The notes under the pieces: model-generated
The model's input: only the letters and a program-made list of their open reading frames with translations
Database searches by the model: none
Told to the model about the DNA's origin: nothing
Assembly (NCBI GenBank): GCA_019638115.1
Contig: JAHBUK010000001.1
Coordinates: forward strand, 762,238 to 826,237
Length of the DNA stretch: 64,000 nt
Source of the DNA: Flavobacteriales bacterium
GTDB taxonomy: Bacteria; Bacteroidota; Bacteroidia; Flavobacteriales_F; PHOS-HE28
Reading direction: 5' to 3'
Made by a program: the position numbers and the translations under genes
Shown: piece by piece, positions 13,545 to 44,825 of the stretch
Layout: every line of letters starts with the position of its first letter
Numbering within the stretch: the stretch's first letter is position 1

Positions 13545-15743
13545 TCATTCCAGCACCTCCAACACCGTCCACGTGGCGCGCCGGTTGGCGGCATGCTCTT
13601 CGGGGCTGCACTGCACACCGGGCACACAATGGTTCAAGGGATTGGTAACGCCATAGCCCTTGTGCTTGACCCGGTCTTTGTTGATGCCTTTACCGGCCAG
13701 GTAGGTTGCCATTGTTTCGGCCCGTTTGCGGCTGAGGAAAAGCTCCATGTCCGCATCTTCACCGGTATTGCCATGCACGGCAAGTTCCACCACCACGGCC
13801 GGGTTCACCATCAGGCGTTCCGCCAGGTTATCCAATTCGGTGCGGGCAAGCGGATCGAGGGTTGTTTTCCCGCTGGTCCAATTCACGAACCGGAAGGTGT
13901 TGGGCACACCAATTTCCAAGGGCTCCATCACCAGGTCGCGCGCGGCACCGAGGTCGATCAATCCTTGGCGCATGCCCATGGTGGACAAGGGAACGCTGAT
14001 GCTGAAGAAGCCTTTCTTTTCCAGCAACACCTCGAATTCCTCGTTCGTTTGCAGGCGAATGTTGATGTCGCCACCAGGCCCTGTCTGACGTGTATCCGCC
14101 TGGTAGGTCTGGATGTTCACCACGCTTACGGTAACCCCTGGTATGAAACCCAGTCGGTCCTTGCGTTTCACCGCACCACGCAACCAAACCCCGGCATCCG
14201 CCACCAAATGCAGGTCACGCGCAACGATCTGTTCCTGGTCGATGCGCTCGGTGCTCAGGTGTTGTTCGGCATCGAAACGGCCACGCAGCTTGGCAACGAT
14301 CCGGTAGGCACGGTCCTTTTCCACGGGGAAGAAGTAATCGCCACGCGCACCACTGGTGGTCTGCCCCAACAGGGCGCCACCAAGGTCGAAGAGCAGTACC
14401 TCGGCACCGATCACCGGTGTGCCATACTCATCGTCGTAGACCACCCCGTTGCACAAGAATGCCTGCTCCAAAGGAGCCAGCATGGTAAAGGCATAAATGT
14501 CGTCGCCCCCTGCTCCACCTGGGCGGTTGCTGGAGAAGAAGCCGCGTTTGTTGGCATCGTCGATGATGAACGCGAAATCATCGCGCGGGCTGTTGACCGG
14601 AGCGCCCACGTTGATGGGAGCACCGAACCCCTTACCTGCCGGCTTTGCAGCGAACACGTCCAAGCCACCCAGGCCGGGGTGTCCGTTGCTGGCGAAATAG
14701 AGCGTGCCGTCCACCGCTATGAATGGGAAGACCTCGTTGCGTGCGGTGTTCACCGTGGGGCCCAGGTTCCGGGGTTCCGACCACTCACCGCCCCGGCGGG
14801 TGGTCACATACAGGTCCATTCCGCCATAGCCGCCGGGCATGTCGCTGGCGAAGTACAGCGTGTTCCCATCCTTTGAGAGTGCGGGATGCGCCACGGAAAT
14901 GGAAGGGTCGTTGAACATGAAGGGCTTCACCGATGCGAAGCCATCACCATCGGAGTTGGCAGCATGGATGCCCAGGCGCGATATCGGCTTACCACTGGTG
15001 GACTGGCCGCGGCTGGGAGGGCCATTCCGAGTGAACCAGAGCTCCTGGCCGTTGGCACTGGCCGATGCAGGCCCCTCATGCAGGTTGGTATTCACCGAAC
15101 CATCCAGCAACTGCGGCTTTACCAATCCACCGTCGGGCGTTAGCTCGGCCACAAAGAGGTCCAGGAAGGGTTGATCGTTCCAAGCGGCTTTGCGTTCAAT
15201 GCCCACGGTAACGTTGCGGGCGCTAACGAACAGCACCCGGTCGGAACCAAGCCAGGCAGTACCGAAATCGGAGAACGAGGAATTGATCTCCGTCGGACGG
15301 ATGGTAAAGCGTGGTTCCCCTTCGCCCAACTTGCGCGCGAAGCCCATGATGTTGCTGCGTTGTGGTTCGGCCCCGTTGGCGACCAGCTCATAGTACTTGT
15401 CCATCCATTCCTGCGCCTCTTCATAGCGCTCTATGCCCTTCAACGCATCGGCATACAGCATCATGTCGCGCGGCTCCACATTGAGGAACTTCATCAGATC
15501 GCCGTACCACTTGGCAGCCTCTTCAGGGTTGCCGAGCTTCATGTGGCTTTCGCCCAACCGGCGTGTAACGTGCTCGTTACGGGCCCCCATCTTAACGGCG
15601 GTGTGGTAGGAACGAGCGGCCCTGGCGTAGGCCATCTGCTGAAAGAAGCGGTCACCCTCGTTCATGTGGGCATCCGCACTGCGCTGCCCGAAAGCAGCCA
15701 GTTGTACGCCGAGGAAGAGGATGACGATCAGAAGGCGGCCCAT
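13545..15743 (-). CDS. TPR / beta-propeller / OmpA protein, PorE-like
   Basis: A 732-residue envelope protein with the order signal peptide (MGRLLIVILFLGVQLAAFG), TPR-type helices about 20-125, WD40-like (PD40) propeller blades about 140-420 (for example KDGNTLYFASDMPGGYGGMD and RGFFSSNRPGGAGGDDIYAF), a carboxypeptidase-regulatory-like beta-sandwich about 430-500, and a C-terminal OmpA peptidoglycan-binding domain about 610-732 (VHGNTGEDADMELFLSRKRA, DRVKHKGYGVTNP). PorE of the T9SS has this same four-domain order and links the machinery to peptidoglycan; many Flavobacteriales carry several such paralogues beside PorP/SprF genes. Here it starts two bases after the PorP/SprF stop, as the last gene of a cargo-PorP-OmpA operon. 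I infer a periplasmic anchor for this secretion or adhesion unit. Confidence 0.9.
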   Translation of the reverse strand: MGRLLIVILFLGVQLAAFGQRSADAHMNEGDRFFQQMAYARAARSYHTAVKMGARNEHVTRRLGESHMKLGNPEEAAKWYGDLMKFLNVEPRDMMLYADALKGIERYEEAQEWMDKYYELVANGAEPQRSNIMGFARKLGEGEPRFTIRPTEINSSFSDFGTAWLGSDRVLFVSARNVTVGIERKAAWNDQPFLDLFVAELTPDGGLVKPQLLDGSVNTNLHEGPASASANGQELWFTRNGPPSRGQSTSGKPISRLGIHAANSDGDGFASVKPFMFNDPSISVAHPALSKDGNTLYFASDMPGGYGGMDLYVTTRRGGEWSEPRNLGPTVNTARNEVFPFIAVDGTLYFASNGHPGLGGLDVFAAKPAGKGFGAPINVGAPVNSPRDDFAFIIDDANKRGFFSSNRPGGAGGDDIYAFTMLAPLEQAFLCNGVVYDDEYGTPVIGAEVLLFDLGGALLGQTTSGARGDYFFPVEKDRAYRIVAKLRGRFDAEQHLSTERIDQEQIVARDLHLVADAGVWLRGAVKRKDRLGFIPGVTVSVVNIQTYQADTRQTGPGGDINIRLQTNEEFEVLLEKKGFFSISVPLSTMGMRQGLIDLGAARDLVMEPLEIGVPNTFRFVNWTSGKTTLDPLARTELDNLAERLMVNPAVVVELAVHGNTGEDADMELFLSRKRAETMATYLAGKGINKDRVKHKGYGVTNPLNHCVPGVQCSPEEHAANRRATWTVLEVLE

Positions 15744-15745
15744 GG

Positions 15746-16678
15746 TCAGAAATAGCGGGGTGATACCGTGTGGCCCTTGATGAACCGCAGGTCATAATTG
15801 AGCATGATCTCGTGGGTGCCGGCGTTGTAGGCCCCAAGACGGGTGGTGGTGAGATCGAAGGCGTAGCCCACCCGGAACTGGTCGTTGATCTGGTACTGGC
15901 CCAAAAAGCCCAGTGCATTGCCCACGCGGTACATGGCACCGAACCAGATGCGGTCACGCATGAGGAAGTTGGCGCTCAGATCAACTGAAAGTGGAGCTCC
16001 GTTCACGACCCGCACCATGGTGGACGGCTTGAACTTCAGGTCCGAGTTGAGGTCCAACACGTATCCGCCCACCAAGAAGAAGTGTCGCTCTTCCTGCGCG
16101 CTGACAAGTACGTTGCCACCCTCCGGGTTGAAACTGTTCTCCAGCAACTTGGGAACGGAAACGCCCACATATGCCCGCGGTGCATGCCAGAACATGCCGA
16201 AGCCGAAGTTGGGCATCAAGCTTCCCTGAATGTTGGCGTTCGCCGGATCGACCTCCACGGTGCTCAAGGATGCGATGTCGGCTTGCATGATGTTGAAACC
16301 ACCTTTCAAGCCGAACGCCAGCCGGTGGTCCTCGCCGGTCCTGATGCGATAGGCATAATCGGCAAACACCCCGCTCTGCCGCATGGGCCCCACCTTGTCG
16401 TTGAGCACGGTGAGCCCCAGTGCCATGTTCTGTGACCTTAATGGGGTGTGCGCCACCAGGGTCTGGGTACTCGGTGCACCATCAAAACCAACCCATTGGT
16501 GGCGGCTCAGGGCCAGCACGGTCATCACATCGGCACTGCCCGCATAGGCCGGGTTGAAAGCCAGGGTGTTGAACATGTACTGGGTGTACAGGGGGTCTTG
16601 TTGCGCGAACAGCGCAGATCCCGGCCATACCAGCGAAAGCGGTAACAGCAAGCGGATGATGGTGCACGCCCGGTTCAT
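15746..16678 (-). CDS. PorP/SprF family T9SS outer-membrane protein (partner of the 2854-residue cargo)
   Basis: A 310-residue protein with a signal peptide (MNRACTIIRLLLPLSLVWPG, cleavage near FAQ/QD) and the family hallmark right after it: DPLYTQYMFNTLAFNPAYAGS, then RHQWVGFDGAP. The C-terminus is aromatic with alternating strands (GYAFDLTTTRLGAYNAGTHE and a final F), as expected of a beta-barrel. SprF is needed in Flavobacterium for export of the type-B cargo SprB, and PorP is a T9SS component in Porphyromonas. Its ATG overlaps the stop of the giant upstream gene as ATGA (16675-16678), and the PorE-like gene follows two bases after its stop, so translation is probably coupled. Confidence 0.94.
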   Translation of the reverse strand: MNRACTIIRLLLPLSLVWPGSALFAQQDPLYTQYMFNTLAFNPAYAGSADVMTVLALSRHQWVGFDGAPSTQTLVAHTPLRSQNMALGLTVLNDKVGPMRQSGVFADYAYRIRTGEDHRLAFGLKGGFNIMQADIASLSTVEVDPANANIQGSLMPNFGFGMFWHAPRAYVGVSVPKLLENSFNPEGGNVLVSAQEERHFFLVGGYVLDLNSDLKFKPSTMVRVVNGAPLSVDLSANFLMRDRIWFGAMYRVGNALGFLGQYQINDQFRVGYAFDLTTTRLGAYNAGTHEIMLNYDLRFIKGHTVSPRYF

Positions 16679-19600
16679 CGGTTCAGGTAGATATAGCCGG
16701 TCAATGCCTCACGACCAGTGCCCAGGTCGAGCACATAGAAATACGTCCCGGAAGGTGCCAGGCCACTGTAAAGACCATCCGGAGATGTACCGTCCCACAC
16801 CACGCTGCGGTTGTTGTAGCCTGCGGCTTCATACATCTTGCCACCCCATCGGTTGAAGATGGTGATGCGGTTGTCCGGATAGCCTTCTATGCCGGGTATC
16901 ACGAAAGCGTCATTGATGCCATCGTTGTTCGGGGAGAAGGCCTCAGGAACGAACACGTCGTCATCGAACGCACAGGGACTGCTGCCCTCCACACGCACAA
17001 CGGCGCATCCGTATCCATCCGTAACGAAGACCTCGAAGCCGGAACTCGTGATCACCGGCACGCTGGTGAAACGATGCACAGGACCCGTTGAGAGTTCGCC
17101 TTCCAGACCATTCACCGCGTACGTACCCGGATCACCGCCCTGGATCACGAAGGAGACCGTATAGGTGCGCGAAACCGGATCGCACACCGTGCTCAGGTCA
17201 ACTACATCCACGCCTTCCTTCACCTCAACGGTCAGGCGGGCCGACACCCCCGGGCAACCCGGAGCGGATACCGTGTAGAGGTAGACATAGCTGCCCGCTG
17301 CAAGGACCGAGGTGTTGAGCACCTCACCATTGAGCCCACCAGCGCCGTTCAAGGCACTCCAAGCACCACCGGTCTGGGGCGAGCCGCCCAAGGCACTGAT
17401 CAAGGGGAAATTGAACAGGGTGTCGCACAGCACCACCGTGGCATCCGAACCGGCATTGGGCAATGTGTTCACCACCACGTTCACCGTGGCCGAGGAATCA
17501 GCGCAAACGCTGTTGCCGGCAACCAAGTACCGATAAGGCCCCGGGGCATTGGTACCCGGCGTGAAGGCGCCGTCAAAGGTGTTGCCCTGTGGGTCGGACC
17601 AGGTCCCACCTGCCTGGGGCGTGCCGGTAAGCACGTCGAACAGTTGCACGGCATCGCTGATCGAGCACAGCACCAACTCGCCGCCAACACCCGGGTCAGG
17701 GAACTCGGATACGCTCAGGGTGAGGACCGAACTGACCGACCCGCAACCGGGATCCACCACCGTGTATCCATACTGCCCGGTCACGCCCGGCGTGAGGAGC
17801 GTGGCGTTGAGGGTTCCGTCGGGCTGCAGACCACCAGCTCCGATCAGGTCGGTCCACGTTCCACCGGTGGAAGGCGATCCTCCGAGCCCTTCGATAAGGG
17901 GGTAGTTGATCTCAGCTCCGCATATTTCAACCACGGCATCGTCACCTGCGCTAAGGCCCTCGCCCACGGTAACGGCCACCTGGCTGGAAGCGCCTGAACA
18001 TGGAGGGACCGCCGGGAAGGAGTAGGTGAAAACGTGAACCCCCGGCGACAATTGGGAGGGGTCCAACACGCTTCCGTTCAATGCGATCGGTCCGGACCAG
18101 TTGCCACCGGTTTGTGCCGTAGGGCCAAGTATGGGGTACAGGTCCAACTCTGTTTGCGTGATGCAGGCTTGTGCGCTGCCGTCCACCCCCGCCACGGGGA
18201 GTTGTGCAACCGCAATGGATAGCGTGGCAGAGGCACTTGGGCATGGCGCCACGCCCACCACCGTGTACACGTAATTGCCCGGTGTATGTGTCGCAGGATT
18301 GAAGAAGTTGCCGTGCGGCTCATCCGGCCCGACCCATGTTCCTCCACCTTGTGGAGAGCCACCCAGGAAATCGCGCATGAAGATCTGCGCTTGGTTGGAG
18401 CACAGCGCCACGGAGGAAGAGACACCTGCATTAACGGCCTGCGGTTCACTTACGGTAACAAAGGCATCATCCGTTGCAGAGCAGGGCAACTGGCCCAATA
18501 CGCGGTATCGATAGATACCGGGCCCGTCCACGATCGGATTGTAAATGCCTCCGCCCACGTGCGGAACATTACCTGGCGCGAACCACTGTCCACCGCTCTG
18601 AGCGTTGGCCCCCAAAAGCGTGAAAAGGTCTATCGGCGCATCCGATGAACAGATGGATATCGAAGCGTCGTTGCCTGCATTCGGTGCTTGCACCAGGTTT
18701 ATCGGAACCACTGCGGTATCGCTGGGGCAGGAGCCCACTGCGGGCACCACGTAATAGTAGTTCCCAGGCAGGTCGGTCAAGGGGTCGAAACTGCCGGTGC
18801 TCGGTCCGAATACGGGATCCAGCCAGAAGCCTCCTTGGTCCGCGTTGCACTGCAGCAAACTGGCCAGATTGACCGCTGTTTGTGATGAGCAAATGTTGGC
18901 CCCTGCCGAACATCCTGCATTGGGGCCATCCAAGACTGTAATGCTCACGCGCGCGGTGTCGCTCTGGCACTGGCTCTGCGAGTTGGCAGGCAGCACGTAC
19001 AGGATCTCCCAAGTGGTACCGGGCACCACGGCCGACGCGTTGAACACACAACCGATCAAGGCACCGCTACCATTCACATCCACGCAGAAACCACCCGTTT
19101 GTGGAGCACCGCCTATTGCGGCGAACACATCCACGTTTCCCTGGCTTTCGCATACCTCCACGGTGCTGTCATCGCCGGCATTGAGGGCATCGCTGATGTT
19201 AACGGTCACAGATGCGGAAGCACTGCCGCAGGGCGACGTTCCCGGCACGGTGTAGATGAACAGGTAGCTTCCGGGAGGGAGCCCTTGTGTATTGAAGAAG
19301 TTCCCGCTCAGCCCTCCGGTGTCATTCGTGTCGGTCCAGGACCCACCGGTCTGTGCGTTCGGACCCAGTGCCGCAAATAGATCAATGGCGGCATCTCCGG
19401 AACACGCCGTTATCTGTGCGTTGTTTCCTGCATTGGGAGCGGGCACCAGTACCACCTGCACTTGCGCTACCGCGTTGGGGCATGGCGTAGTGCCTGTAAC
19501 GGTGTACACGTATATGCCGGAAACATCCGAGGCCGGATCGAAGACCGGTCCATGAGGGTCGTTGTTGAAGGTCCAGGCCCCAACCAGATCGGGGTTGCCG

Positions 19601-22600
19601 GTAAGGAGGTCGACCAGTGCAAAGGCGATGGTATCGGAACAGATCTGGGCCACACTCGGGAACCCCGCCACTGGCGCCGTTACCTCATTGATGGTGACGG
19701 TGGCCGAATCACTCGTGCACGGTGCCAAACCCGTAATGCGGTACGTGTAAACCCCGGGCAGGTCCGTGCCAGGCACATAGGTCCCCGTACTTCCTGCGCC
19801 GCTTGGCCCGGTCCATGTGCCACCACCTTGTGGGCTACCCCCGAGCTGCGCAAGCAGGTCTATGGCACCATCGGTGCTGCATACCGATCGGGTAGCACTG
19901 CTTCCTGCGTTGGTGGCAGGATTTACCGAGATCACGAGGAAGGCTGATGCACTGTTGCAGCCTGCCAAGCCAGGCACGGTGTAGGTGTAGGTGCCGGGCG
20001 GATCGATACCCGGCTGGAAGATGCCCGGAACTGCGCCGGGACCGCTCCAGACCCCGTTCGAGGCCGGGGAATTGGTCAAGAGTGTGAAAAGCAGGACCGG
20101 ATTGGCATTGCTGCAGAAGGTCACAGGTCCACCAATTCCTGCATTGGGCGCTTGGTTGAGCACCACCGAAACCAAGGCACTATCGCTGGGGCAACTGCCC
20201 TGCCCTTGCACGGTGTACACATAGGTGCCCGTGGTGTTCACCGTAGGGAGGAAGGTACCCGAGAAGGGGGCGCCCGTTCCTTGCACGTGCCAAGTGCCAC
20301 CCAATTGCGCACTGGTGCCCAGCAGTGGGAACAAATTCACAGCTCCGCTGCTGGAGCAGATCTGGGTATTGGCATCAACACCTGCATTGGGCTCTTGGAA
20401 AACCGTGATGGTCAACGTGGAGCTCACGTTCGGGCAAGGCTGGGCGCTGGGTACCGTGTAGGTATACACATAGGTGCCAGGCCCCATGGCCAGCGGATTG
20501 AAAACGCCATTGGAAGGGGGATTCCCTGGTGCCGGGCCCGCCCACGTACCATTCAAGGCCGGGCTACCCAGCAATCGATCCACCATGGCAAAAGCAGGCT
20601 CCGTGCGACAAACCTGGATCGTGTTGCTGATGCCTGCATTCGCCGAACCGCTCACGCCTACCGTGACCGATGATGAAACGGTTGCAGGGCACGGAAAAAC
20701 GCCGTTCACCGTGTAGGTATACACCCCTGGTTGACTTACCCCAAGGACGAACGTGCCGGTGAACGGAGGATTCAAAGGCGCCGGCCCCACCCACGTGCCA
20801 CCTGGATCGGGAGTACCACCAAGTTGCCCGAAAAGATTGATCGACCCACCCGCACCCGTATTGCACAGGGTGATCGAGGAGGGAAGCCCTGCATTGGGCG
20901 CAGTGTTCTCGAATATGGAGACCACCGCAGTGTCGCCCGCGCATATTCCGCTACCCGTCACCACATAGAGGTAATCGCCCGGCTCGCTGGTGCCAGGAGT
21001 ATATGTTCCGGTAGGATATGGGAGCAGGTCCGGGCCGACCCATTGGCCATTGAATTGGGGCTGACCACCCAATACATCGTACAGCAAGAAAGGACCATCC
21101 ATGGAGCAGACCGTGCGCGAACCACTCACACCGGCAAAAGCCGCCGGGGTAACCGAAATGGTCAACGAACTGCTCTTATTGGCGCAAGGAGGAGCACCCG
21201 TAACCGTGTATACATACACTCCCTGCTGGTCCAGACCGGGTACGAAGTTGGGGCCATGGGGCAAGTTGTTGAAGGTCCACGCACCCCCGGGGGCCGGTGT
21301 GCCGCCCAATTGAGCGGTCATGTTGAACTCGGGAGAAGTGGAACAGACCGTAATGTCGTTCGGTAAACCCGCATTGGCCGCTGGCACGAGCTGCACGGTC
21401 ACCGTTATGATGGCCGCATCGCATGGAGTAGGAGCCCCTACGCGGTATTGGATGATGTCCGACGGGCTGTGTGTTGTCGGGTTGAACGTACCGGAGAACG
21501 ACTCACCGTTCCGCGTCCATGTTCCGCCACCAGTAGGACCGCAGTTGATGAAGGGGAACAAGGCCGTAGGTCCACTGTCACTGCACAAGACCGCTGTGCT
21601 ATTGCAACCCGCATTGGGCGCTTGGTTCACGGTCACCTGGGTCTGTGCGGAATCGGCATCACAAGCCACTGAACCCGACAAACGGTATCTGAACACATAC
21701 ACTCCAGCACCTGCCAGGGATGCGTTGAACGTGCTTCCGCTCAATGCACCTGTGCCACTGAGGTCCAACCACTGTCCGCCGAGCTGCGGATTTCCGCCCA
21801 ACCCACTGAACAAGTTCACCGAAGTGCTGGAGCTGCACACTGTTATGGACCCGTTCGTTCCGGCGTTCAAAGCAGGCACGATCGTAACCTGCACGGTGGA
21901 GACCGCTTCCGGGCATGGACCGATCGCAGGCACCGTGTACGTGAATCCATAGACCCCGGGTGGCAACCCGATGGGGTTGAAGAATTCACCAGAGAGTTGC
22001 CCGGTGGGGCTATCCTCGGTCCAAGTGCCGTTCAAGTCGGGATCCCCGCTCAAACCATCGAACAGACTGACGGGCGGCGATCCGGCACAAACCGCCATTT
22101 CACCACTAACACCCGCATCGGGTGCGTCGTTAACGGTCGCTTCCAAGATCGCGTTCGCATTGGTGCACGGTGCAACACCGACAACGGTGTAGGTGTAGTT
22201 GCCAGAAGGACTGCTGGCCGGGAAGAAGATGCTGTTGGTGGGGCCTGATGGGCCTTCCCACGACCCACCACCCTGTGGCGTTCCGCCAAGGAGCGTAAAG
22301 AGGTCCACGGGAGCCTGCGTGTTACACACTTCAAAGGCCCCACCGGTCCCGGCAACGGGTTGCTGATTCACGTTCACCACCAGCACCGCGCTCGCATTCA
22401 AACAGGGTGTTTGACCTGCGACCTGATAGGTGTAGCCACCCGGTACCGAAATTCCTGGCACGAACAGCCCATCGGGCACAGGTCCACCCGGTCCGGTCCA
22501 TGTGCCGTTGGCATCCGGCGACCCAGCAAGCACACCCAATAGATCGAACGTATCATCGCTGCTGCAGACCGTAATGGAGGTGTTCACGCCAGCATTGGGC

Positions 22601-25239: not shown

Positions 25240-25253
25240 AATGGATAGGGGCC

Positions 25254-25261
25254 GCAATTTA
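25254..25261 (-). promoter_or_regulatory. Possible -7 element for the 2854-residue gene
   Basis: TAAATTGC on the minus strand, 14 bases before the ATG, is a weak TAnnTTTG match. The 171-base gap to the upstream PorP/SprF gene leaves room for a promoter, so the operon may be re-initiated here. Confidence 0.25.
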
Positions 25262-25325
25262 GGGTAGTTATGAACAGCTGTTGGTTAAGTTGGTGGTCGT
25301 TTGTTGGGGTCAGTCGACGAAATAG

Positions 25326-25347
25326 CGCTTTTCGACGATGAAAAGCG
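25326..25347 (-). terminator. Hairpin between the two giant-adhesin units
   Basis: CGCTTTTC and GAAAAGCG form an 8-bp stem with a 6-base loop, 64 bases after the PorP/SprF stop. The T run behind it is weak (CTATTTCG), so it may be only a partial terminator or a processing site between the two halves of the block. Confidence 0.4.
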
Positions 25348-25410
25348 GCGCGGGTCACCATCCCGTACCGAACGTGTACAAGAAGACAACGGTAAACCTG
25401 AAGCGGTTGC

Positions 25411-26334: not shown

Positions 26335-26338
26335 GGCT

Positions 26339-29300: not shown

Positions 29301-32300
29301 GCACACAGGCCTGTTGCCTGCGGCGTGCCTTGCCCACCACCGGGTTCAGGTGACCAGTTGAAGGTGTAGGGCGCAATGCCACCCACAGGCCCCACCGTGG
29401 CGCTTCCCGTGCAGGCTCCTGCGCAAAGCACCGGCGTGCTGCTCAGGTTCGGAATGATCACTTGTGAAGGCAGCACGGAGGCATCCGCGAAGCTCACACA
29501 GCCGTTCGCATTGGTGACCTGCACCGTGTAGGTACCCGGACAAAGGTCCGCCACCACCAGCACGTTACCTGCGATCACCGCACCGCTGGCATCGGTCCAT
29601 TGCACCACGCAAGGCTCGGCCGTGCAGGTGAAGGTGACCCCGATCGTGCCGTCGCAACCATTGGCGCAGCTGGCCTGTCCATCAATGGGCACAAGCACTT
29701 CGGCATCCGCATCGGACACTTGCACCACCTCCTGTACGGAGCATCCATTGGCGTCCGTCACTTCCACCACGTACAACCCACCGCAGAGGTCCACGGCATC
29801 GGGGTCGGTGGAAACGACCACGCCGTTCAAGGTCCATGCGATGGTGTAAGGCAGCGTACCGCCGGTGATGTTCACGGAAGCCGTTCCATCGCAGATCGGG
29901 CAGGTACTCTGCGTGCTGCTCACGCTGATGGCGAGCGGTGCCGGTTCCACGATGTTCCAACTTGCACTGGTACTGCACCCGTTCGCATCGAACACGGCGG
30001 CCGTGTACGTACCGGCACAAAGGCCAAGCGCCTCGTTGTTGCCCTGACCGTTGGAAGGCACCGGCGACCAGATGATGTTGTACGGCGCCACTCCACCTGA
30101 AAGCGTGAGCGCGATGCTGCCGTCACATTCCCCCGCGCAGCTGATGTCACTGGTGAGCGCATCGATCACCACCGGGGTCGGCTCCAGGATCAATACGGAA
30201 ACGGTCTCGAAGCAACCGGCACCCGTGCCGATGGTGATCTCGTAGAACCCGGCGCACAGGCCCGTGGCGAAGGGTGTTCCCTGCCCACCGCCCGGTACCG
30301 GCGACCACACGAAGGTGAACGGCGGCTGGCCGGAGGTGATGCCCACCGTTGCCGTTCCATCACAGGCACCGGCGCAGGAAACCGGCGTGCTGCTGATCGC
30401 CGTACCGATCGGTGGTGGCGGAAGCACTTCAGCAGGAGCGATGGACACGCAACCCAATGCATTGGTGATGGTGGCGAAGTAGGTGTCCACACAAAGCCCC
30501 GTAAGCTGATCGCTGCTGCCTATCGTGTTGCCCTGTGCATCGGTCCACTCAATGGTGCAAGGTGGCTCAGAGCAGGTGTAGGTGGCGCTCACCGTACCAT
30601 CACACGTGTCCGGGCAGGTGGTCTCCCCATTCGTTGTGGTGATGGTCTCTCCATCCGCATCGGTGATCGGCACGAGCAGGGAAACCACGCAGTTGTTGCC
30701 CGGGGTTACGGTAACGGTGTACAAGCCGGCACAGAGTGCACCTACGCTCGTGCCGTTGCCGATCACGTTGCCAAGTGCATCGGTCCACTCCACGGCGAAG
30801 AGGCCTGAACCACCGCTAACGATCACCTCTGCAGTACCGATGCATTGCAGGCAAGCGCTCGGAGTGGTCACTGCATCAAGCACCACGGGAGCGGGTTCGG
30901 TGATGGTGAAGACCAGCAGGCTGTCGCAGCCGTTGGCATCGCTCACCGTTACGCTCCACGTGCCGGGGCAGAGGCCTGTGGCGCTGTTGGTGCCCTGTCC
31001 GTTGGGCGGCACAGGCGACCAGAGGTAGGTGTAGGGCGCCACACCACCACCCACGTTCAGCGTGATGCTGCCATCACAAAGACCGGGACAGGAAACATCC
31101 GAAAGGGTGCTCGTGATGGCCAACGGATCGGGCGAAAGAACTAACAGGCTTGCAAGCGTGGAACAGCCATCCACATCGGTGATGGTCACTTCCACCACAC
31201 CCGGGCAAAGCTCAGTGGCCTGCGGTGTGTTCTGTCCCCCTCCGGGTGCCGGGCTCCAGACGTAGGTGTATGGTGCAGTGCCGCCCGTCGGGCCCACGGT
31301 GGCGCTACCATCGCAGGTGTTAGCGCAGGTAGCCGGGGTGGTGCTGCCGTTGGACAGGATCTCCTGGAAGGGATCGATGGTGAAGGTGATGGTGGTGTCG
31401 CAACCGTTGTCGTCCGTAAGGGTGACGGAATAGGTATCACCCGCGCAAAGACCCGTGGCTTGCGTGATGCCTTGACCACCACCGGGGTCCGGTTGCCACA
31501 GGATGACCACGTTGCCGGTGCCGCCCGAGAAGATCACTTCCGCAGAACCTGTGCAGGGATCGTTGCAGTTGGCCGGCAGGTCGATCACGGAAGCGACCAA
31601 GGGCGGCGGTTCGGCGATCACGAAAGCGATCGTGGTATCACAACCCGCAGCATCCACCACCAGCACCGTGTAGTTACCAGCGCAGAAGCCCGTGGGCGTC
31701 GCCGTTCCCTGACCAACGGCCGGTGCGGGGTCCCAGGTGTAGGTGTAGGGGTCCACGCCACCACTTGACGTTGCCGACACACTGGCATCGCAACCACCGG
31801 CACAGCTCACATCGGTGATGGCGAGTTGCACATCGATGGGCTGCTGGGGAAGGATGTCGAAGGTGAGCGTCGTGTCGCAGCCGTTCGCATCAGTGATGGT
31901 AACCGACCACAGGCCAGCGCACAACTGCTCGGCATTAGGCGTGCCTTGACCGACCGGCGGCAGCGGACTCCAGAGATATTGGTAGGGCGACACTCCGCCG
32001 GAGACCGTCACGCCCGCAGTACCATCGCAGGGTCCTGCGCAGCTTTCGTTCGTGAAGCTGCTGGTGATCGTCAGGGCCGGAGGCTCCAGGATGGTGATCT
32101 GCAGGACCGTATCGCAACCGATGGCGTCCACGATGCGCAGGTCGTACACACCGGCGCAGAGACCCGTGGCGCTGTTGGTGCCTTGGCCGCCACCAGGTGC
32201 AGGGGTCCACGTGTAGGTGTATGGCAAGATGCCTCCGGTGGAGCTCACACTGGCCGTTCCATCGCAGTCACCGTTGCAGCTTACGTCGGTGGTGGTCACC

Positions 32301-35300
32301 ACGGAATTGATGTCCGCCGGCGCCACGATGATGAACTGCACCGTGGTATCACAGCCTGCCGCGTCGGTAATGGTGAGGGTGTAGTTGCCCGGGCAAAGGT
32401 TGGTGGCCTGTGCAGTACCCTGGCCATTGATCGTGCCAGGGCCCCATTGATAAGCGTAGGGCGCAATGCCGCCACCCACCGTTGCCGTGGCAGTGCCCGC
32501 ACAGTTCAAGTCGCAACCGGCTTCGGTCAGCACCAGATCCACCGTGATCGGTGCAGGCGCCACGATCTCGATCGTTAGGGTGGTGTCGCAACCCAATGCA
32601 TCGACCACCAACAACTGGTAGGTGCCCGGGCAAAGACCGGTAGCGTCAGGAGTGCCCTGCCCACCACCGGGCGCAGGGGACCAGGTCCACGTGTAAGGCG
32701 CCGTGCCACCGGTGGTGGTAGCGGATGCAGTGGCCACGCAGGTGCCTGCACATGCCGCTGCCCCGATCGTCACGTCCACTTCAATAGGCGGTGGTTCATT
32801 GATCAAGAAGGTGAGCGTGGTATCGCACACGCCCGAAGTGATCGTTACGCTGTACGTGCCAGCACACAGGCCCGTGGCGTTCGCCGTGCCTTGACCGCCG
32901 CCCGGCGCAGGGCTCCAGAGGTACGTGTACACACCGGTTCCACCGCTCACCGTCAGCGCAACACTGCCAGTGCATTCACCGGCACAGATCGCGTCGTTCA
33001 CCACCGAGGTCACCGTGATCGGATCGGGAGCAAGAACCGTGAAGGCGATCGTGGTGTCGCAGCCCACCGCATCGGTGACCGTAAGCGTGTAGGCTTGCGG
33101 GCAGAGGCCGGTAACGTTGGCCGTGCCCTGACCACCACCGGGTGCGGGGCTCCAGAGGTAGGTGTAAGGCGCCACACCACCCGTGGCGATCACACCAGCC
33201 GTTCCATCGCATACGCCAGGGCAACTCGTGGGCAGCACTTGCAACGAGAGTTCGATCGGAACCGCGTCCAGTATGGTGAAGGGCACCACCAAATCGCAGC
33301 CGTTCGCATCGGTGATCGTTACGCTATACAAGCCTGCGCAAAGACCCGTGGCGTTCGCTGTTCCCTGACCACCACCGGGCGCAGGGCTCCAGTTGTAGGT
33401 GTAGCCGGGTGTACCGCCGCTCACCGACACGCTGGCCGTGCCATCACACAAGCTGCCGCAGGTAAGGTCCGTCTGGCTCGCAACGACATCCAATGGCGGC
33501 GGCTCGTTGATCAGGAAGGTCACCGTGGTGTCGCAGCCGTTCGCATCGGTGATCGTAACAGCGATCGGACCGGCACACAAGCCCGTGGCCGTGCCGGTGC
33601 CTTGTCCTGCGCCGGGCGCTGGTGTCCATACGTAGGTGTAGCCACCTACCCCACCGTTCATCGGCAACACCGTGGCCGTGCCATCACAGGCACCCGCACA
33701 GGTCACATCCGTGGAACTGGGTGTGGGGGCCAACGGCGGTGGTGCATTGATGGTGAAGCTCACCGTGGTATCGCAGCCGGCTGCATCGAGCACCGTCAAT
33801 GACCAAATACCCGGACAAAGGCCGCTTACGTTCGGTGTGCCTTGTCCCACAGCAGGTACAGGCGACCATGTGTAGGTGTATGGTGCTGTGCCTCCGTTCA
33901 CCACCGTGGTGATGCTTCCATCGCAGGCATCCGCGCAGCTTGCATCCACGGCAGTGCCTTGCACATCGATGGCCCCCGGTGAATCGATGGTTATCGAGAC
34001 CAGGGTATCGCAACCCGTGGAAAGGTCCGTGATGGTGATCTGGTAGGTGCCAGCGCAAAGGCCGGTGCCAATGCCTGTGCCCTGCCCGCCGCCCGGTGCC
34101 GGGGACCAGTTGAAGTCGAACGGACCCGGAGTACCGCTGGCGATGATGGTGGCGCTACCATCACACACGCCGAAGCACGAGGCATCGGTGCTGCTCACAT
34201 CCAGATCGATCGGTGGAGGCTCATCGATCACGAAGGCGATGGTGGTATCGCAGCCGTTGGCGTCCAAGAGCGTTACGCTCCACGGGCCTGCGCACAGTCC
34301 GCTAACGCTGTTGGTGCCCTGGCCCACCGGTGGCTGGGGCGACCACGTTACCGTGTAAGGCGGCGTGCCACCCTGGGGGTTGATCTCCGCAGTACCATCG
34401 CAAGCACCAAAGCAGCTAGTGCCACTGAAAAGCAGGCTGGGGTCAAGGGGCTGAAGATCGAAGAAGAAGGTGGTGTCGAAGGTGCAGTTGTTGGCATCGG
34501 TTACCACCAGCGTGTTCAGCCCCGGGCAGAGCCCGAAGAAGGAGGAGGACGTACCCGCGCCGTTGTTCCAGTTGTAGGTGATGGGGGCCACGCCACCAAC
34601 ACCCAACGCGGTGCGTGTGCCGTTGCAGGAGGTGGGGCAGGTGGGCGGCGTACCCGGGCCGAAGAAGATCACGCCCAAGGGCGCCGGTTCGGAAACGTTC
34701 ACGGCCACCGGGCACGAAATACCCTGCCCAAGGTCAGTGACGATCACGATCTGTGGACCACCGCAGGCCGATGTCCAGGTCTGGGTGTTCGGTCCGCCGT
34801 TCAACCATTGGTAAGTGAAGACCGGCCCTACCCCACCGGTCACCGTTACGGTCACCGTGGCATTGCATTCGCCACGGCAACGCACACCAAAGCCGTTGTA
34901 GCTGCTTACCACTTGGGCATCCACGATGAAGGGCGTCTGCCCCGGTCCCGTGCCGCACACGTTCACATCGCGATCACTGGCTTCAGCCTGGTCCGCTTCC
35001 CACTCCCAGGCACTCACCATACCACCCACCACCAGCTTGGAGTTGCCCGCTGCAAGTACGTTTTGAAGGCTGCCAAAGGCCGGTGCTTCATCGAGCATCA
35101 CCAACGATGAGCCGGCCAGGAACCGCTTGTTGCGCCTTCCTTCCACCTGCAAGGCACCAGCGCGCAACACGCTGCCGTTGGCGATCAGCACGCCTTCGCG
35201 CAGCACGATGGCCTTGCCCGGCCGGAGCACCAGATCACTGATCACGCTCCAACTTCCGCTGCCCTCGAACACCAGGCGGGAGGCCAGGGGAATGCTGCGC

Positions 35301-35716
35301 AGATCCAGCTCCACGCCTTCCTGCCGCACCACCAGCCGCACATCGCCGCGCTTCAGCCATTGCACATCACCCTGCATCCGCCAATCGCCCGCTATGTTCA
35401 ATTCGCTCCGCTGATCGCCCACCACTTGCACGGACGCCATGCTGCCATCCACCACAAGCGCATTGCACCAAGCCGCTCCACGCACCTGGACCTCCACCGC
35501 ACCAGTGGGCGCTATCACCACGTTGTCGCTCACGCGGGGCACACCGGCACCACCGTTCCCATTGGGCTGCACGCTCCAGTTGGCCGCATTGTCCCAGCGA
35601 CCGGATGCACCCGTCCAGTAGAGTGTGCGGGTATCCTCGGACTGTGCCGAAGCCGCCAGCCCCATTGCCAACAGCACCAGTACCAGGACCTGTCTGAGGA
35701 GTGCGTGCATGCGCAT
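26339..35716 (-). CDS. Giant SprB-repeat adhesin with type-B T9SS sorting domain
   Basis: 3125 residues. Signal peptide MRMHALLRQVLVLVLLAMGLA (a second ATG lies two codons in). Residues about 28-260 form a beta-rich head beginning LYWTGASGRWDNAANWS, a common start of Bacteroidota surface proteins. Then come 33 SprB-type repeats of about 75-80 residues: CxxxCDGTATV, GGxxPYTYxWSP, GGGQGTxxATGLCAGTY, VTITDANGCDTT. Each has about four Cys, probably two disulfides. Two PKD/Ig-like domains follow (ADAGADQDLCFGATITLDG; ADAGEDRTIFPGQSTALGG), then the type-B sorting domain (ITSGFTPNGDGWNDTW, IYNRWGELLFQS, VGTYYYIVKLND). SprB of Flavobacterium johnsoniae is the mobile gliding adhesin with the same repeats. 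Gliding itself cannot be claimed because no gld core gene is in view. It sits between two PorP/SprF genes, 17 and 4 bases away. Confidence 0.94.
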   Translation of the reverse strand: MRMHALLRQVLVLVLLAMGLAASAQSEDTRTLYWTGASGRWDNAANWSVQPNGNGGAGVPRVSDNVVIAPTGAVEVQVRGAAWCNALVVDGSMASVQVVGDQRSELNIAGDWRMQGDVQWLKRGDVRLVVRQEGVELDLRSIPLASRLVFEGSGSWSVISDLVLRPGKAIVLREGVLIANGSVLRAGALQVEGRRNKRFLAGSSLVMLDEAPAFGSLQNVLAAGNSKLVVGGMVSAWEWEADQAEASDRDVNVCGTGPGQTPFIVDAQVVSSYNGFGVRCRGECNATVTVTVTGGVGPVFTYQWLNGGPNTQTWTSACGGPQIVIVTDLGQGISCPVAVNVSEPAPLGVIFFGPGTPPTCPTSCNGTRTALGVGGVAPITYNWNNGAGTSSSFFGLCPGLNTLVVTDANNCTFDTTFFFDLQPLDPSLLFSGTSCFGACDGTAEINPQGGTPPYTVTWSPQPPVGQGTNSVSGLCAGPWSVTLLDANGCDTTIAFVIDEPPPIDLDVSSTDASCFGVCDGSATIIASGTPGPFDFNWSPAPGGGQGTGIGTGLCAGTYQITITDLSTGCDTLVSITIDSPGAIDVQGTAVDASCADACDGSITTVVNGGTAPYTYTWSPVPAVGQGTPNVSGLCPGIWSLTVLDAAGCDTTVSFTINAPPPLAPTPSSTDVTCAGACDGTATVLPMNGGVGGYTYVWTPAPGAGQGTGTATGLCAGPIAVTITDANGCDTTVTFLINEPPPLDVVASQTDLTCGSLCDGTASVSVSGGTPGYTYNWSPAPGGGQGTANATGLCAGLYSVTITDANGCDLVVPFTILDAVPIELSLQVLPTSCPGVCDGTAGVIATGGVAPYTYLWSPAPGGGQGTANVTGLCPQAYTLTVTDAVGCDTTIAFTVLAPDPITVTSVVNDAICAGECTGSVALTVSGGTGVYTYLWSPAPGGGQGTANATGLCAGTYSVTITSGVCDTTLTFLINEPPPIEVDVTIGAAACAGTCVATASATTTGGTAPYTWTWSPAPGGGQGTPDATGLCPGTYQLLVVDALGCDTTLTIEIVAPAPITVDLVLTEAGCDLNCAGTATATVGGGIAPYAYQWGPGTINGQGTAQATNLCPGNYTLTITDAAGCDTTVQFIIVAPADINSVVTTTDVSCNGDCDGTASVSSTGGILPYTYTWTPAPGGGQGTNSATGLCAGVYDLRIVDAIGCDTVLQITILEPPALTITSSFTNESCAGPCDGTAGVTVSGGVSPYQYLWSPLPPVGQGTPNAEQLCAGLWSVTITDANGCDTTLTFDILPQQPIDVQLAITDVSCAGGCDASVSATSSGGVDPYTYTWDPAPAVGQGTATPTGFCAGNYTVLVVDAAGCDTTIAFVIAEPPPLVASVIDLPANCNDPCTGSAEVIFSGGTGNVVILWQPDPGGGQGITQATGLCAGDTYSVTLTDDNGCDTTITFTIDPFQEILSNGSTTPATCANTCDGSATVGPTGGTAPYTYVWSPAPGGGQNTPQATELCPGVVEVTITDVDGCSTLASLLVLSPDPLAITSTLSDVSCPGLCDGSITLNVGGGVAPYTYLWSPVPPNGQGTNSATGLCPGTWSVTVSDANGCDSLLVFTITEPAPVVLDAVTTPSACLQCIGTAEVIVSGGSGLFAVEWTDALGNVIGNGTSVGALCAGLYTVTVTPGNNCVVSLLVPITDADGETITTTNGETTCPDTCDGTVSATYTCSEPPCTIEWTDAQGNTIGSSDQLTGLCVDTYFATITNALGCVSIAPAEVLPPPPIGTAISSTPVSCAGACDGTATVGITSGQPPFTFVWSPVPGGGQGTPFATGLCAGFYEITIGTGAGCFETVSVLILEPTPVVIDALTSDISCAGECDGSIALTLSGGVAPYNIIWSPVPSNGQGNNEALGLCAGTYTAAVFDANGCSTSASWNIVEPAPLAISVSSTQSTCPICDGTASVNITGGTLPYTIAWTLNGVVVSTDPDAVDLCGGLYVVEVTDANGCSVQEVVQVSDADAEVLVPIDGQASCANGCDGTIGVTFTCTAEPCVVQWTDASGAVIAGNVLVVADLCPGTYTVQVTNANGCVSFADASVLPSQVIIPNLSSTPVLCAGACTGSATVGPVGGIAPYTFNWSPEPGGGQGTPQATGLCAGVYAVQITDATGCDTTVTVLILEPPPLVITGTAGAVACNGDCNGTISVVVTGGVAPYTYAWSDGQQSAQATGLCAGSYTLTVTDANGCTSDATFEVTEPDPLVLAGASTQSECGVCNGGVEVTASGGTQPYVEVWSSVAGIIGTGPAITDLCAGIYTVQVFDANGCEASLVVPVSDVDGEVLTTAGTEVTCPGDCDGSVSVDLQCSEPPCTIAWFDGDGNDLGQNTAQVDGLCAGTYYVQVTNGIGCITVDTATVTAPDPILANLSTVPVSCAGLCDGSATVGPTGGSGDYTYFWEPGAINGQGTPQATGLCAGSYTVTITDVVSGCSIVQGVLILEPGLLVTDPIITSPLCFGDCTGVIEVNASGGVIPYTYNWSPVPPDGQGVAIGTGLCAGNWQVEVSDGNGCSTLVEVDLVAPDAITIDVQTTDNNCFGDCQGTATALVSGGLAPYVLTWTDATGTVIAQGVNDVATLCAGDYEVQVVDANGCIGVQTFSIGQQSAIEANLLVTNETCFGPCDGTAAVAPVGGVGPYDILWSPEPDQGQGTEQVSGLCADSWQVTITDQLGCDSTYTFLVLPYQALDDNASVVDVLCASSCTGSISLGVTGGFGNYTYAWSPVPPNGDGTAQATGLCAGTYNVTVSDGVGCDSTFIYTVTEPPAITVSEGVVVPTSCADANDGSITVDASGGVAPLSFSWVGPGNYTSTSEDINDLFPGTYTLTVTDANGCSVQLVVLVDALSTVQADAGADQDLCFGATITLDGSQSVGAVTYTWTNDQGAVVGNSAVIDPGVLAPGSYTFTLTVADGPCTSTAQVTITVLELPVADAGEDRTIFPGQSTALGGSPSGPAGSTFTWSPDTLISSTSAANPTAAPVQSTWYVLNVVAPNGCIGVDSVLVTVVPEVVITSGFTPNGDGWNDTWIIDNIELFPDCEVEIYNRWGELLFQSVGYRQPWDGRYKGGQVPVGTYYYIVKLNDPEFPEPFTGPLTVIR
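27210..34900 (-). repeat. Array of about 33 SprB-type coding repeats
   Basis: 33 units were counted by the CxxxCDG start and the tryptophan about 25 residues later. Units near the N-terminal half read PYTYxWSPAPGGGQGT almost invariantly, while the C-proximal half is organised in a higher-order pattern listed separately. Confidence 0.88.
28010..30900 (-). repeat. Nested four-unit super-repeat, three copies
   Basis: SprB units 18-29 form three copies of an ordered set of four: a short unit with CxxC (CLQC at 30842-30853, CPIC at 29891-29902, CGVC at 28952-28963), a unit with PPC or EPC plus a W-T-D or W-F-D segment, a unit with VxCAGxC plus SATVG, and a CxGxCxGxI-type unit. The spacing of the CxxC markers is 951 and 939 bases, a period of about 315 codons. 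Confidence 0.8.
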
Positions 35717-35733
35717 TGCTTGTTCCGCTTGTT

Positions 35734-36675
35734 CTAATCGAAGGCCGGGCAGTTGATCATGCGCATGCCGGGGTCATCCTTGCCACAGGGTGTTATGGCC
35801 AGAATGATCTCGTGCGTATTCGAGCTGCCGTTCCGCAAACGCGAAGTGGTGATGTCGTAGCTGTAGCCCAGCTGGAAGTACTGCAGGAAGCCCACGCGCA
35901 TCATCAGCGTCAGGGCATCGCCGCTGCGGTAACCGGCACCGAAACCGATCACCCGGTTGTACTCCAGCATGGCGTTCAGGTCCAGGGCCATGGGCACGCC
36001 TGCCGCGAACTTCAACAGGGCGCTCGGAGTAAGGCTCGTCTTGCGTGCCACGCGGAAACGATGGCCACCGCTCAGCATGAACTGACGGGCCAGCTTGGAA
36101 TCGGTACCGATATCCGGCATCCGGTTGCCCAATACCTGGTGCAGTGCCAGCCCTCCGAAGGTGTTCTTGTTGTACATCCAGATACCCGGGGTGATCTCCG
36201 GCGCCACCATCACGCTGGAGGCACTTCCCAATACCGGATCGTTGAAGTCGGACAGCACGATCTCGCCCACGTTGAGCTTCATCTGCTGCACCCCTCCGAA
36301 CACGCCCAATGCCATGTGCATGTCACGGCTCAACTGCATGTTGTACGCGTAGGCCAGCAGGAAGCGGGTATAGCCCCAGTTGCCCGCATTGTCGGCCTCC
36401 ACGAAACCTCCGATGCCGTGTACGTTGGTCTGGTAGCCCTTGCGTTTCTTGCCCCGCAGAGCACCGTGCACGCTGGCCCATCCCGTAACGGGTGCCCCCT
36501 CCAAGCCCACCCACTGCTGGCGGTAGCCCAAGCGCAGGTCCAGGCAATCCTTGCTGCCGGCCACAGCGGGATTCACGCTGAACTGGTTGAAGACGTACTG
36601 GGTGTACTGCGACAGTTGCTGGCCGACCACGGCGGTGGCACCCAACAGGAAGGGCAATACCAACAGCCACCTCAT
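35734..36675 (-). CDS. PorP/SprF family T9SS outer-membrane protein (partner of the 330-residue cargo)
   Basis: 313 residues from the ATG at 36675, which gives a proper signal peptide (MRWLLVLPFLLGATAVVGQ); the frame is open upstream but that part overlaps the previous gene. The family start is QLSQYTQYVFNQFSVNPAVAGS, then YRQQWVGLEGAPVTGWAS. Barrel-like strands end with FQLGYSYDITTSRLRNGSSNTHE and a Cys-containing tail (CGKDD, NCPAFD). Its ATG overlaps the upstream stop as ATGA (36672-36675), and the SprB-like giant begins 17 bases after its stop. It is therefore the second gene of a cargo-PorP-giant-PorP transcript. This is one of three PorP/SprF paralogues in 21 kb, which suggests cargo-specific partners. 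Confidence 0.93.
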   Translation of the reverse strand: MRWLLVLPFLLGATAVVGQQLSQYTQYVFNQFSVNPAVAGSKDCLDLRLGYRQQWVGLEGAPVTGWASVHGALRGKKRKGYQTNVHGIGGFVEADNAGNWGYTRFLLAYAYNMQLSRDMHMALGVFGGVQQMKLNVGEIVLSDFNDPVLGSASSVMVAPEITPGIWMYNKNTFGGLALHQVLGNRMPDIGTDSKLARQFMLSGGHRFRVARKTSLTPSALLKFAAGVPMALDLNAMLEYNRVIGFGAGYRSGDALTLMMRVGFLQYFQLGYSYDITTSRLRNGSSNTHEIILAITPCGKDDPGMRMINCPAFD

Positions 36676-37664
36676 CGCACAAGGGATATGAAGCCCGTGT
36701 AGGGCGGCGATCGCCCTTCGAGCTGGTTGAGCTGGATGTGGTAGTAATAAGTGCCCACCGCGACCGGCGTTCCATTGTTGGTGCCATCCCAGGGCTCGCG
36801 GTAACCGGTGCTGCGGTAGACCACCTGCCCCCATCTATCATGAATGCGGACCTCCGCTCCCGGATAATCCGCAATACCCGGTATCAGCCACGTATCGTTG
36901 AACCCATCGCCGTTGGGCGTGAAGGTGTTGGGAGGCTGTATGCGCCGGATCACCTCAACGAACACATCGGCGCTGTACGTGCAGCCGTTCAGGGTGGTGC
37001 TCACCGTGTAGAACACGGTGCTTGGCGGACTGGCGATCGGGTTCGATATCCCATTGCCGCTCAACCCCGTGGTAGGCGTCCAGTCGTACGGCGGACCACC
37101 ATAGGCCACCAGTTGCGTGCTTTCCCCCTCGCCGATCTGCACATTGGGGCCCACACCGAAATCGACTCCCACGATATCCGCACCCGGGCCACTGGTCATA
37201 ACATTGAAACCGCACTGCGCAGGGATCGTCGAGCCACCGTTCAAGGCACCACCTACCACCACCCAGTATTGGGTGTTCGGCAATAGGGTCTGCGCGGTGG
37301 TAATGGCCTGTTGTGTTCCGAAAGCGCAACTGGAAACGGCACTGAAGGAGGCCGGCGCGCAACTGCCGTTGCCCGATAGCACCACCACCGCCAACTCATC
37401 ACCCATACCCACCACATCCGGGCAATCGATGTTGGACACACTAACGCTTACCGCACCGCCCACGCTGTTGGTGGTGAAGGTGTACCAAAGAACCGCTTGT
37501 GTGCCAGGGCAGAAACCCGGCAAGCCAACCGCACCCGTGTTGTTCTGCTGCTGCGGTTGCTGGGCACATAGAACCAAGGCACCCGAACAATCGCTGTTGG
37601 GTGGCTGCCCGTGGCAATACGCCGCGGAGAGCACTACAAGAAGCGCGAAAAGGCTTGTGCGCAT
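36672..37664 (-). CDS. Small T9SS type-B sorted surface protein, first gene of the adhesin block
   Basis: 330 residues: signal peptide MRTSLFALLVVLSAAYCHGQ; a Cys-rich beta-sandwich at about 22-160 beginning PPNSDCSGALVLCAQQ, with LWYTFTTNSVGG and TQYWVVVGGALNGG, as in many Flavobacteriales surface proteins; a short Ig-like stretch at about 165-235 (PPYDWTPTTGLSGNG, TVFYTVSTTLNGCTYSADV); and a type-B sorting domain at about 240-330 (PPNTFTPNGDGFNDTW, IHDRWGQVVYRS, VGTYYYHIQLNQL). Function unknown; it may be an adhesin tip, adaptor or base. It opens the minus-strand block behind a TACCTTCG box and is coupled by ATGA overlap to its PorP/SprF. Confidence 0.9.
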   Translation of the reverse strand: MRTSLFALLVVLSAAYCHGQPPNSDCSGALVLCAQQPQQQNNTGAVGLPGFCPGTQAVLWYTFTTNSVGGAVSVSVSNIDCPDVVGMGDELAVVVLSGNGSCAPASFSAVSSCAFGTQQAITTAQTLLPNTQYWVVVGGALNGGSTIPAQCGFNVMTSGPGADIVGVDFGVGPNVQIGEGESTQLVAYGGPPYDWTPTTGLSGNGISNPIASPPSTVFYTVSTTLNGCTYSADVFVEVIRRIQPPNTFTPNGDGFNDTWLIPGIADYPGAEVRIHDRWGQVVYRSTGYREPWDGTNNGTPVAVGTYYYHIQLNQLEGRSPPYTGFISLVR

Positions 37665-44616: not shown

Positions 44617-44781
44617 AACGAGCAACGGTGGCGATCGCCCGTGCGGGTTGCGGTAGTTCAGTTGAGGAGGGAGGGTCCCCTGCGGTTGTTCCGTTTCAAT
44701 TGGTTGGCGAGCGAATTTGCGGTGCGGTAGAGGCCCATTCAGGAGGTCGCCTACCGTGGTTCGCACGCCGCGATACACCCA

Positions 44782-44789: not shown

Positions 44790-44825
44790 ACCTTGTTCAG
44801 CCATGCAATGTTCCTACATTTCGAC

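What the first reader, a model, noticed from the sequence alone, without database searches (positions are those of the whole stretch)
13545..37664. 24-kb block with three type-B cargo/PorP-SprF pairs, each translationally coupled, capped by a PorE-like gene
Seen: three proteins with type-B (gliding-motility) C-terminal domains (330, 3125 and 2854 residues) are each followed by a distinct PorP/SprF gene with ATGA overlap, a 4-base gap and ATGA overlap; the last pair is followed 2 bases later by a TPR/propeller/CRD/OmpA protein. Known: SprF supports export of type-B SprB, and PorE-type proteins anchor T9SS parts to peptidoglycan. Inference: this is a modular surface organelle in which each cargo has its own barrel and one periplasmic anchor serves the set, possibly a composite filament of two giant fibres and one small tip or base protein.
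Basis: partly seen in the sequence, partly recalled or inferred. Interest (0 to 1): 0.72.

Follow-up and report, generated by a model that had tools for sequence, protein, structure and literature searches.

The report
Three adhesin-barrel pairs, different anchors
An uncultured bacterium carries, side by side, three surface proteins that each come with their own outer-membrane carrier barrel; the pairs follow a known pattern, but the carriers' tails suggest one is tied to the moving gliding track and another to the static cell wall, so they look like three separate devices rather than one organelle.

Summary
Type-B cargo/PorP pairing, with or without PorE, is already published (F. johnsoniae, P. 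gingivalis). Cargo CTDs and adjacent PorPs co-evolve across other families (Mantel r 0.61; within-genome shuffles 0.04 +/- 0.06), which supports 'each cargo has its own barrel'. 'One anchor serves the set' and 'composite filament' are not supported: the three PorPs belong to three subfamilies with different periplasmic tails. PorP1 ends in an invariant C-x11-CPxF[DE] tail, like PorPs encoded just before gldJ, and is probably disulfide-linked to the gliding track. PorP2 has a bare tail and belongs to an old, roughly one-per-genome pair with a giant SprB-repeat fibre. PorP3 ends SPRYF, the tail type that goes with a PorE-like gene downstream. Best reading: three separately shuttled adhesins with different fates, in two probable transcription units. 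The tail-to-anchor rule is the main new, testable lead; it has exceptions and is not fully separated from shared descent.

The parts
36672..37664 (-). c1: small type-B cargo, 330 aa: signal peptide, cysteine-rich beta-sandwich domain, Ig/PKD-like domain, type-B CTD (residues 243-330)
   Evidence: CHU_C 2.5e-25, TIGR04131 4.2e-21; orthologues of about 330 aa directly upstream of PorP1; AF2 model pLDDT 84
35734..36675 (-). PorP1: PorP/SprF barrel, 313 aa from ATG 36675 (ATGA overlap with c1), C-tail PC-x11-CPAFD
   Evidence: PF11751 8.5e-61; tail C297, C309, P310 invariant in 16 sequences; spacing of 11 in 12 of 12 genus copies
26339..35716 (-). c2: giant SprB-repeat fibre, 3125 aa, about 33-35 repeats of about 79 aa, type-B CTD (residues 3042-3124)
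   Evidence: PF13573 2.6e-187, CHU_C 2.1e-23; repeat count; length 3114-3127 in 11 of 12 genus copies
25411..26334 (-). PorP2: PorP/SprF barrel, 307 aa, short bare tail, 4-base gap after c2
   Evidence: PF11751 1.5e-76; class-wide subfamily paired with SprB-repeat cargo
25240..25410 (-). only long intergenic gap in the block; terminator-like stem 25326-25347; probable start of the second transcription unit
   Evidence: weak, consensus scan only; gap present, variable in length, in genus copies
16675..25239 (-). c3: giant fibre, 2854 aa, 31 Ig-like repeats of about 80 aa with no Pfam match, type-B CTD (last about 90 residues)
   Evidence: CHU_C 4.2e-25; own repeat model; AF2 of two repeats pLDDT 96.7; Ig-like fold, incl. 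GhpA fragments
15746..16678 (-). PorP3: PorP/SprF barrel, 310 aa, ATGA overlap with c3, C-terminus SPRYF
   Evidence: PF11751 3.3e-86; PRYF-type clade with PorE downstream
13545..15743 (-). PorE-like periplasmic protein, 732 aa: TPR, PD40 propeller, CarboxypepD_reg, OmpA; 2 bases after PorP3; no lipobox seen
   Evidence: OmpA domain matches PDB 6top, E 1e-7

Best explanation
The block holds three independent type-B T9SS adhesin modules, not one organelle. Each cargo crosses the SprA translocon and is then taken over and held at the surface by the PorP encoded directly after it (shown for homologues; inferred here). The periplasmic C-tail of each PorP then decides what the adhesin is tied to (inferred). 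PorP1's C-x11-CPxF[DE] tail would form a disulfide with the conserved Cys of GldK in the GldJ/K/N track, so the small adhesin c1 can be carried along the cell. PorP3's SPRYF tail goes with the PorE-like protein, whose OmpA domain would hold giant fibre c3 to the cell wall. PorP2 carries neither mark, and giant fibre c2 is held only by its barrel or by an unknown partner.
For: Genome has the machinery: SprA, GldJ and GldK; GldK keeps the GCF cysteine. 9 of 12 PorPs directly follow a type-B CTD gene. Block conserved across the genus; PorP3 overlap is -4 in all 10 complete copies. CTD-PorP co-evolution: r 0.605 against 0.038 +/- 0.060 for within-genome shuffles, 71 pairs; nearest-pair test 44 of 69 against 11.4 expected. 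Three PorPs in three supported subfamilies. Tail marks: PorPs directly upstream of gldJ have a terminal-cysteine tail in 16 of 16 genomes, those upstream of gldK in 0 of 16. C-x11-C spacing in 12 of 12 genus PorP1s and 12 of 16 gldJ-type tails. PRYF tail with PorE directly downstream in 12 of 12 against 16 of 97 other PorPs, p 1e-8, in 16 families not used to frame the rule. Literature: SprF C-tail cysteines bond GldK and are needed for sustained movement (PMC12635249); PG1035-PorP-PorE complex and the proposal that PorE-linked cargo is static (PMC9143113, PMC12618676).
Against: PRYF tails fall mostly in one clade; the phylogenetically independent-pair test had too few pairs (2-4) to decide, so tail and PorE may simply be inherited together. 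Exceptions: some PorPs have a cysteine tail and a PorE-like neighbour with OmpA (L198, L210, L211, L224). SprF's motif is C-x-C, not C-x11-C. No disulfide, movement or binding was measured, and the organism is uncultured. In the window's PorE-like protein one position of the OmpA domain reads Asn where most orthologues have Asp, so wall binding is not certain. Nothing explains what holds PorP2.
Confidence: 0.6

Rival explanations
1. One reading: one composite surface organelle. c1, c2 and c3 assemble together, each placed by its own PorP, and the PorE-like protein anchors the whole set to peptidoglycan.
For: All seven genes stay together in every genus genome read across the block, on one strand. 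Only one PorE-like gene is in the block.
Against: c2-PorP2 lives without the others in nine other families. PorE-like genes associate with the PorP3 subfamily class-wide, not with PorP1- or PorP2-types. The 171-base gap with a terminator-like stem separates c3-PorP3-PorE. The three PorP tails differ.
Confidence: 0.12
2. PorP1, PorP2 and PorP3 are all static surface anchors. The cysteine tail of PorP1 is structural or bonds something other than GldK, and the genus does not use these proteins for gliding.
For: Uncultured genus with no gliding data. GldK/PorK occurs in non-gliders too (PMC12635249). The spacing differs from SprF C-x-C. Some cysteine-tail PorPs neighbour OmpA-bearing PorE-like genes.
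Against: Both tail cysteines are invariant while the residues between them vary. The same spacing marks the gldJ-adjacent PorPs. The CTD-PorE-PorP(CPKF) subfamily uses PorE-like proteins without OmpA, 5 of 5 complete, as expected if wall binding is avoided.
Confidence: 0.2
3. c2 and/or c3 are grappling-hook-like fibres as in Aureispira GhpA: long Ig-repeat proteins that oligomerise into a hook used to catch other cells.
For: GhpA (PDB 9flp, 5898 aa) is the only solved giant with a homologous C-terminal domain found here. Two c3 repeats and the c1 model match GhpA fragments among the top hits.
Against: Sequence homology to GhpA is confined to the CTD and the domain before it. Ig domains of animal proteins score as well. 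c3 itself finds no PDB sequence hit.
Confidence: 0.08

Closest known systems
F. johnsoniae type-B substrate / SprF-like shuttle pairs, including five PorE-linked operons (PMC12618676, PMC9143113)
   Same: Type-B CTD cargo directly followed by its PorP/SprF; in some operons a PorE-like gene follows. c3-PorP3-PorE is the same arrangement as Fjoh_3952-3951-3950.
   Different: Three pairs in tandem, conserved genus-wide; one PorP has a C-x11-CPxF tail; two of the cargoes are giants of about 3000 aa.
P. gingivalis PG1035-PorP-PorE complex (PMC9143113)
   Same: Same three protein kinds; PorE has the TPR/propeller/CRD/OmpA order found in P0007.
   Different: P. gingivalis has a single PorP and a single type-B protein; P0007 shows no lipobox and scores below the NCBIfam PorE cut-off (301 against 600 bits).
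F. johnsoniae SprB-SprF gliding adhesin and carrier (PMC12635249)
   Same: Giant SprB-repeat cargo next to a PorP/SprF (c2-PorP2); C-tail cysteine pair on a carrier (PorP1).
   Different: Here the giant SprB-repeat cargo has the carrier without cysteines, and the cysteine tail is on the carrier of the small cargo.
Aureispira grappling hook protein GhpA (PDB 9flp)
   Same: Giant Ig-repeat protein with a homologous type-B C-terminal domain.
   Different: Homology outside the C-terminal region is fold-level only; no evidence of hooks here.

Membership tests
Type-B T9SS cargo with cognate PorP/SprF shuttle | Cargo ends in a type-B CTD (TIGR04131/CHU_C) above curated cut-off | tested here: met
   All three cargoes
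Type-B T9SS cargo with cognate PorP/SprF shuttle | PorP/SprF gene directly downstream of the cargo gene | tested here: met
   Three of three, conserved in the genus
Type-B T9SS cargo with cognate PorP/SprF shuttle | Specific recognition of the cargo CTD by its own PorP | tested here: inconclusive
   Co-evolution strong; no binding or secretion assay possible
PorE family (T9SS anchor) | TPR, beta-propeller, CRD-like and OmpA domains in that order | tested here: met
   OmpA part matches 6top
PorE family (T9SS anchor) | NCBIfam T9SS_PorE model above cut-off | tested here: not met
   301 bits against cut-off 600; so PorE-like, not PorE
PorE family (T9SS anchor) | Outer-membrane lipoprotein | tested here: not met
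   N-terminus MGRLLIVILFLGVQLAAFGQR has no lipobox cysteine (by eye)
PorE family (T9SS anchor) | Binds peptidoglycan and PorP | not testable with these tools
   One OmpA position is Asn in the window copy, Asp in most orthologues
SprF-type track-linked carrier (PorP1) | Cysteine pair in the periplasmic C-tail, invariant in homologues | tested here: met
   C297 and C309 invariant in 16 sequences
SprF-type track-linked carrier (PorP1) | C-x-C spacing as in SprF | tested here: not met
   C-x11-C
SprF-type track-linked carrier (PorP1) | Disulfide to GldK and helical movement of the cargo | not testable with these tools
   GldK with the GCF cysteine is present
GhpA-type grappling hook (c2, c3) | Homology to GhpA beyond the C-terminal region | tested here: not met

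The most novel reading that the evidence does not exclude
The C-terminal tail of a PorP/SprF carrier is a sorting code. A C-x11-CPxF tail links the exported adhesin by disulfide to the moving GldJ/K/N track; a PR[YF]F tail docks a PorE-like wall anchor; a bare tail leaves the adhesin on its barrel. This block displays all three codes side by side, and the code lets motile and static adhesins be predicted from sequence across Bacteroidota.
Probability: 0.35. Interest if true: 0.7.

Novelty: new member of a known kind. Interest (0 to 1): 0.45.

Why it matters
Type-B cargo/PorP modules are known, but which adhesins glide and which stay put has been worked out for only a handful of proteins in one species. 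If the carrier's last residues tell the two apart, carriers in sequenced Bacteroidota genomes could be sorted by sequence, and the idea can be tested with a few point mutants in F. johnsoniae. The block also defines an old, nearly one-per-genome giant SprB-repeat fibre with its own carrier (c2-PorP2) in ten families, whose function is unknown.

Tried and rejected
Composite-organelle model: lowered because c2-PorP2 occurs without the others in other families and PorE tracks with the PorP3 subfamily. Recent tandem duplication of the pairs: rejected, since each PorP belongs to a separate class-wide subfamily. Tail-PorE association as independent events: the independent-pairs test was underpowered. 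A phylum-wide draw of genomes gave mostly species without clear PorP hits and was not used further. PDB sequence search with PorP3 found nothing meaningful. Fold search with the c1 model gave only generic Ig-like matches. The sigma-70-type promoter scan of the c3 leader found none; Bacteroidota promoters are not covered by it. An earlier count gave the cysteine spacing as x13/x14; one search corrects it to x11.

Full report
What is there. On the minus strand of the window lie seven genes in the order c1 (330 aa), PorP1, c2 (3125 aa), PorP2, c3 (2854 aa), PorP3 and a PorE-like gene. The three cargoes end in type-B T9SS sorting domains and the three barrels are PorP/SprF proteins, all above curated cut-offs. 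The last protein has TPR, PD40, CarboxypepD_reg and OmpA domains in the PorE order, but it scores below the NCBIfam PorE cut-off and shows no lipobox, so I call it PorE-like.

More than chance. The genome (G000, 4.06 Mb) has 12 PorPs and 43 type-B CTDs. Nine PorPs directly follow a CTD gene, which random neighbours would give with probability about 1e-15; in a tenth a PorE-like gene lies between them. The two PorPs with no cargo neighbour are the ones directly upstream of gldK and of gldJ. SprA, GldJ and GldK are present.

Conservation of the block. PorP1 orthologues occur in all 22 relatives of the genus that were searched. In nine relatives where the block could be read whole, plus the window, all seven genes are present in the same order; two further copies are cut by the fetched stretch inside c3. 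c2 is 3114-3127 aa in 11 of 12 copies despite 45-59% identity, and individual repeats are often closest to the repeat at the same position in other species, so the repeat number is stable. c3 varies more, 2567-2869 aa in complete copies. Outside the genus the three pairs were not found together in the sampled families: PorP2-type pairs stand without c1 or c3.

Cargo and carrier co-evolve. In 71 cargo-PorP pairs from the window's genome and other families of the class, CTD distances and PorP distances correlate at r 0.605; shuffling partners within each genome gives 0.038 +/- 0.060, maximum 0.32 in 2000 trials. Given the nearest PorP in another genome, its CTD is also the nearest CTD of that genome in 44 of 69 cases, against 11.4 expected. 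The three window CTDs are 37-47% identical to each other.

Three carriers, three subfamilies. A tree of 152 PorPs puts PorP1, PorP2 and PorP3 in three different groups (FastTree, local support only). PorP3's group ends mostly in PR[YF]F and nearly always has a PorE-like gene directly downstream. PorP2's group has bare tails, no PorE neighbour, and in nine other families a type-B SprB-repeat cargo upstream (2283-3583 aa in eight, 1402 aa in one). PorP1's group is small and all its sampled members end in a cysteine tail.

The tail rule and how it was tested. I noticed in the window's genome that PorPs followed by PorE end in PRYF. In 16 other families this held: 12 of 12 PRYF-tailed PorPs had PorE directly downstream against 16 of 97 others, p about 1e-8. 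PorPs directly upstream of gldJ have a terminal cysteine tail in 16 of 16 genomes; those upstream of gldK in none of 16. Twelve of the 16 gldJ-type tails, and 12 of 12 genus PorP1 tails, have exactly 11 residues between two cysteines, followed by P. In PorP1 the two cysteines and that proline are invariant while the residues between vary. A separate subfamily with order CTD-PorE-PorP and a CPKF tail uses PorE-like proteins without OmpA in 5 of 5 complete cases, whereas PRYF-type PorE-like proteins have OmpA in 11 of 12.

Limits of the rule. PRYF tails are mostly one clade, and the phylogenetically independent test had too few pairs. Four PorPs have a cysteine tail and a PorE-like neighbour with OmpA. 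SprF of F. johnsoniae uses C-x-C, not C-x11-C (PMC12635249). None of this is a measurement of binding or movement.

How it most likely works. Type-B substrates are held after export by their own PorP/SprF (PMC12618676, PMC9143113). SprF is joined to GldK of the gliding track by a disulfide from its C-tail cysteines, and these cysteines are needed for sustained movement but not for export (PMC12635249). PorE-linked type-B proteins were proposed to be static and wall-anchored (PMC9143113, PMC12618676). Putting these together with the tails, c1-PorP1 is predicted to be track-linked, c3-PorP3-PorE wall-anchored, and c2-PorP2 held by its barrel or an unknown partner. The steps from tail to anchor are inference. 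The 171-base gap with a terminator-like stem before c3 suggests that the PorE-like gene belongs to the c3 unit alone.

The cargoes. c2 is made of about 33-35 SprB repeats. c3 is made of 31 repeats of about 80 aa that match no Pfam family; two of them fold confidently as Ig-like domains. c1 has a cysteine-rich beta-sandwich before its Ig-like and sorting domains. The only solved giant found with a homologous C-terminal region is the Aureispira grappling hook protein GhpA; the likeness beyond that region is fold-level and shared with animal Ig proteins.

Verdict. The tail code is the new lead; it can be tested in F. johnsoniae.

Noticed in passing
L007, L128, L137, L154, L168 and others: A PorP with a terminal-cysteine tail lies directly upstream of gldJ in 16 of 16 genomes of different families; I found no mention of this pair in the papers read.
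   Followed up: partly
L019-L041, own genome: Many type-B CTDs without a PorP neighbour end in a shared GHVT[LIV]xR motif that the window's three cargoes lack; they may share one orphan carrier, as three do in F. johnsoniae.
   Followed up: no
L198, L210, L211, L224: PorPs with a cysteine tail next to a PorE-like protein that keeps its OmpA domain: exceptions to the tail rule.
   Followed up: no
window 2208-4331, 4405-6483, 6745-8826, 44631-46724: Four pappalysin-like M43 metalloproteases with PKD domains surround the block, at least two with type-A sorting tails.
   Followed up: no
window 13545-15743, OmpA domain: The window copy has Asn where most genus orthologues have Asp in the VHxD stretch, which may affect peptidoglycan binding.
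   Followed up: no
window 38690-43099: A 1469-aa protein just beyond the block has only a type-A sorting tail as a recognisable domain.
   Followed up: no
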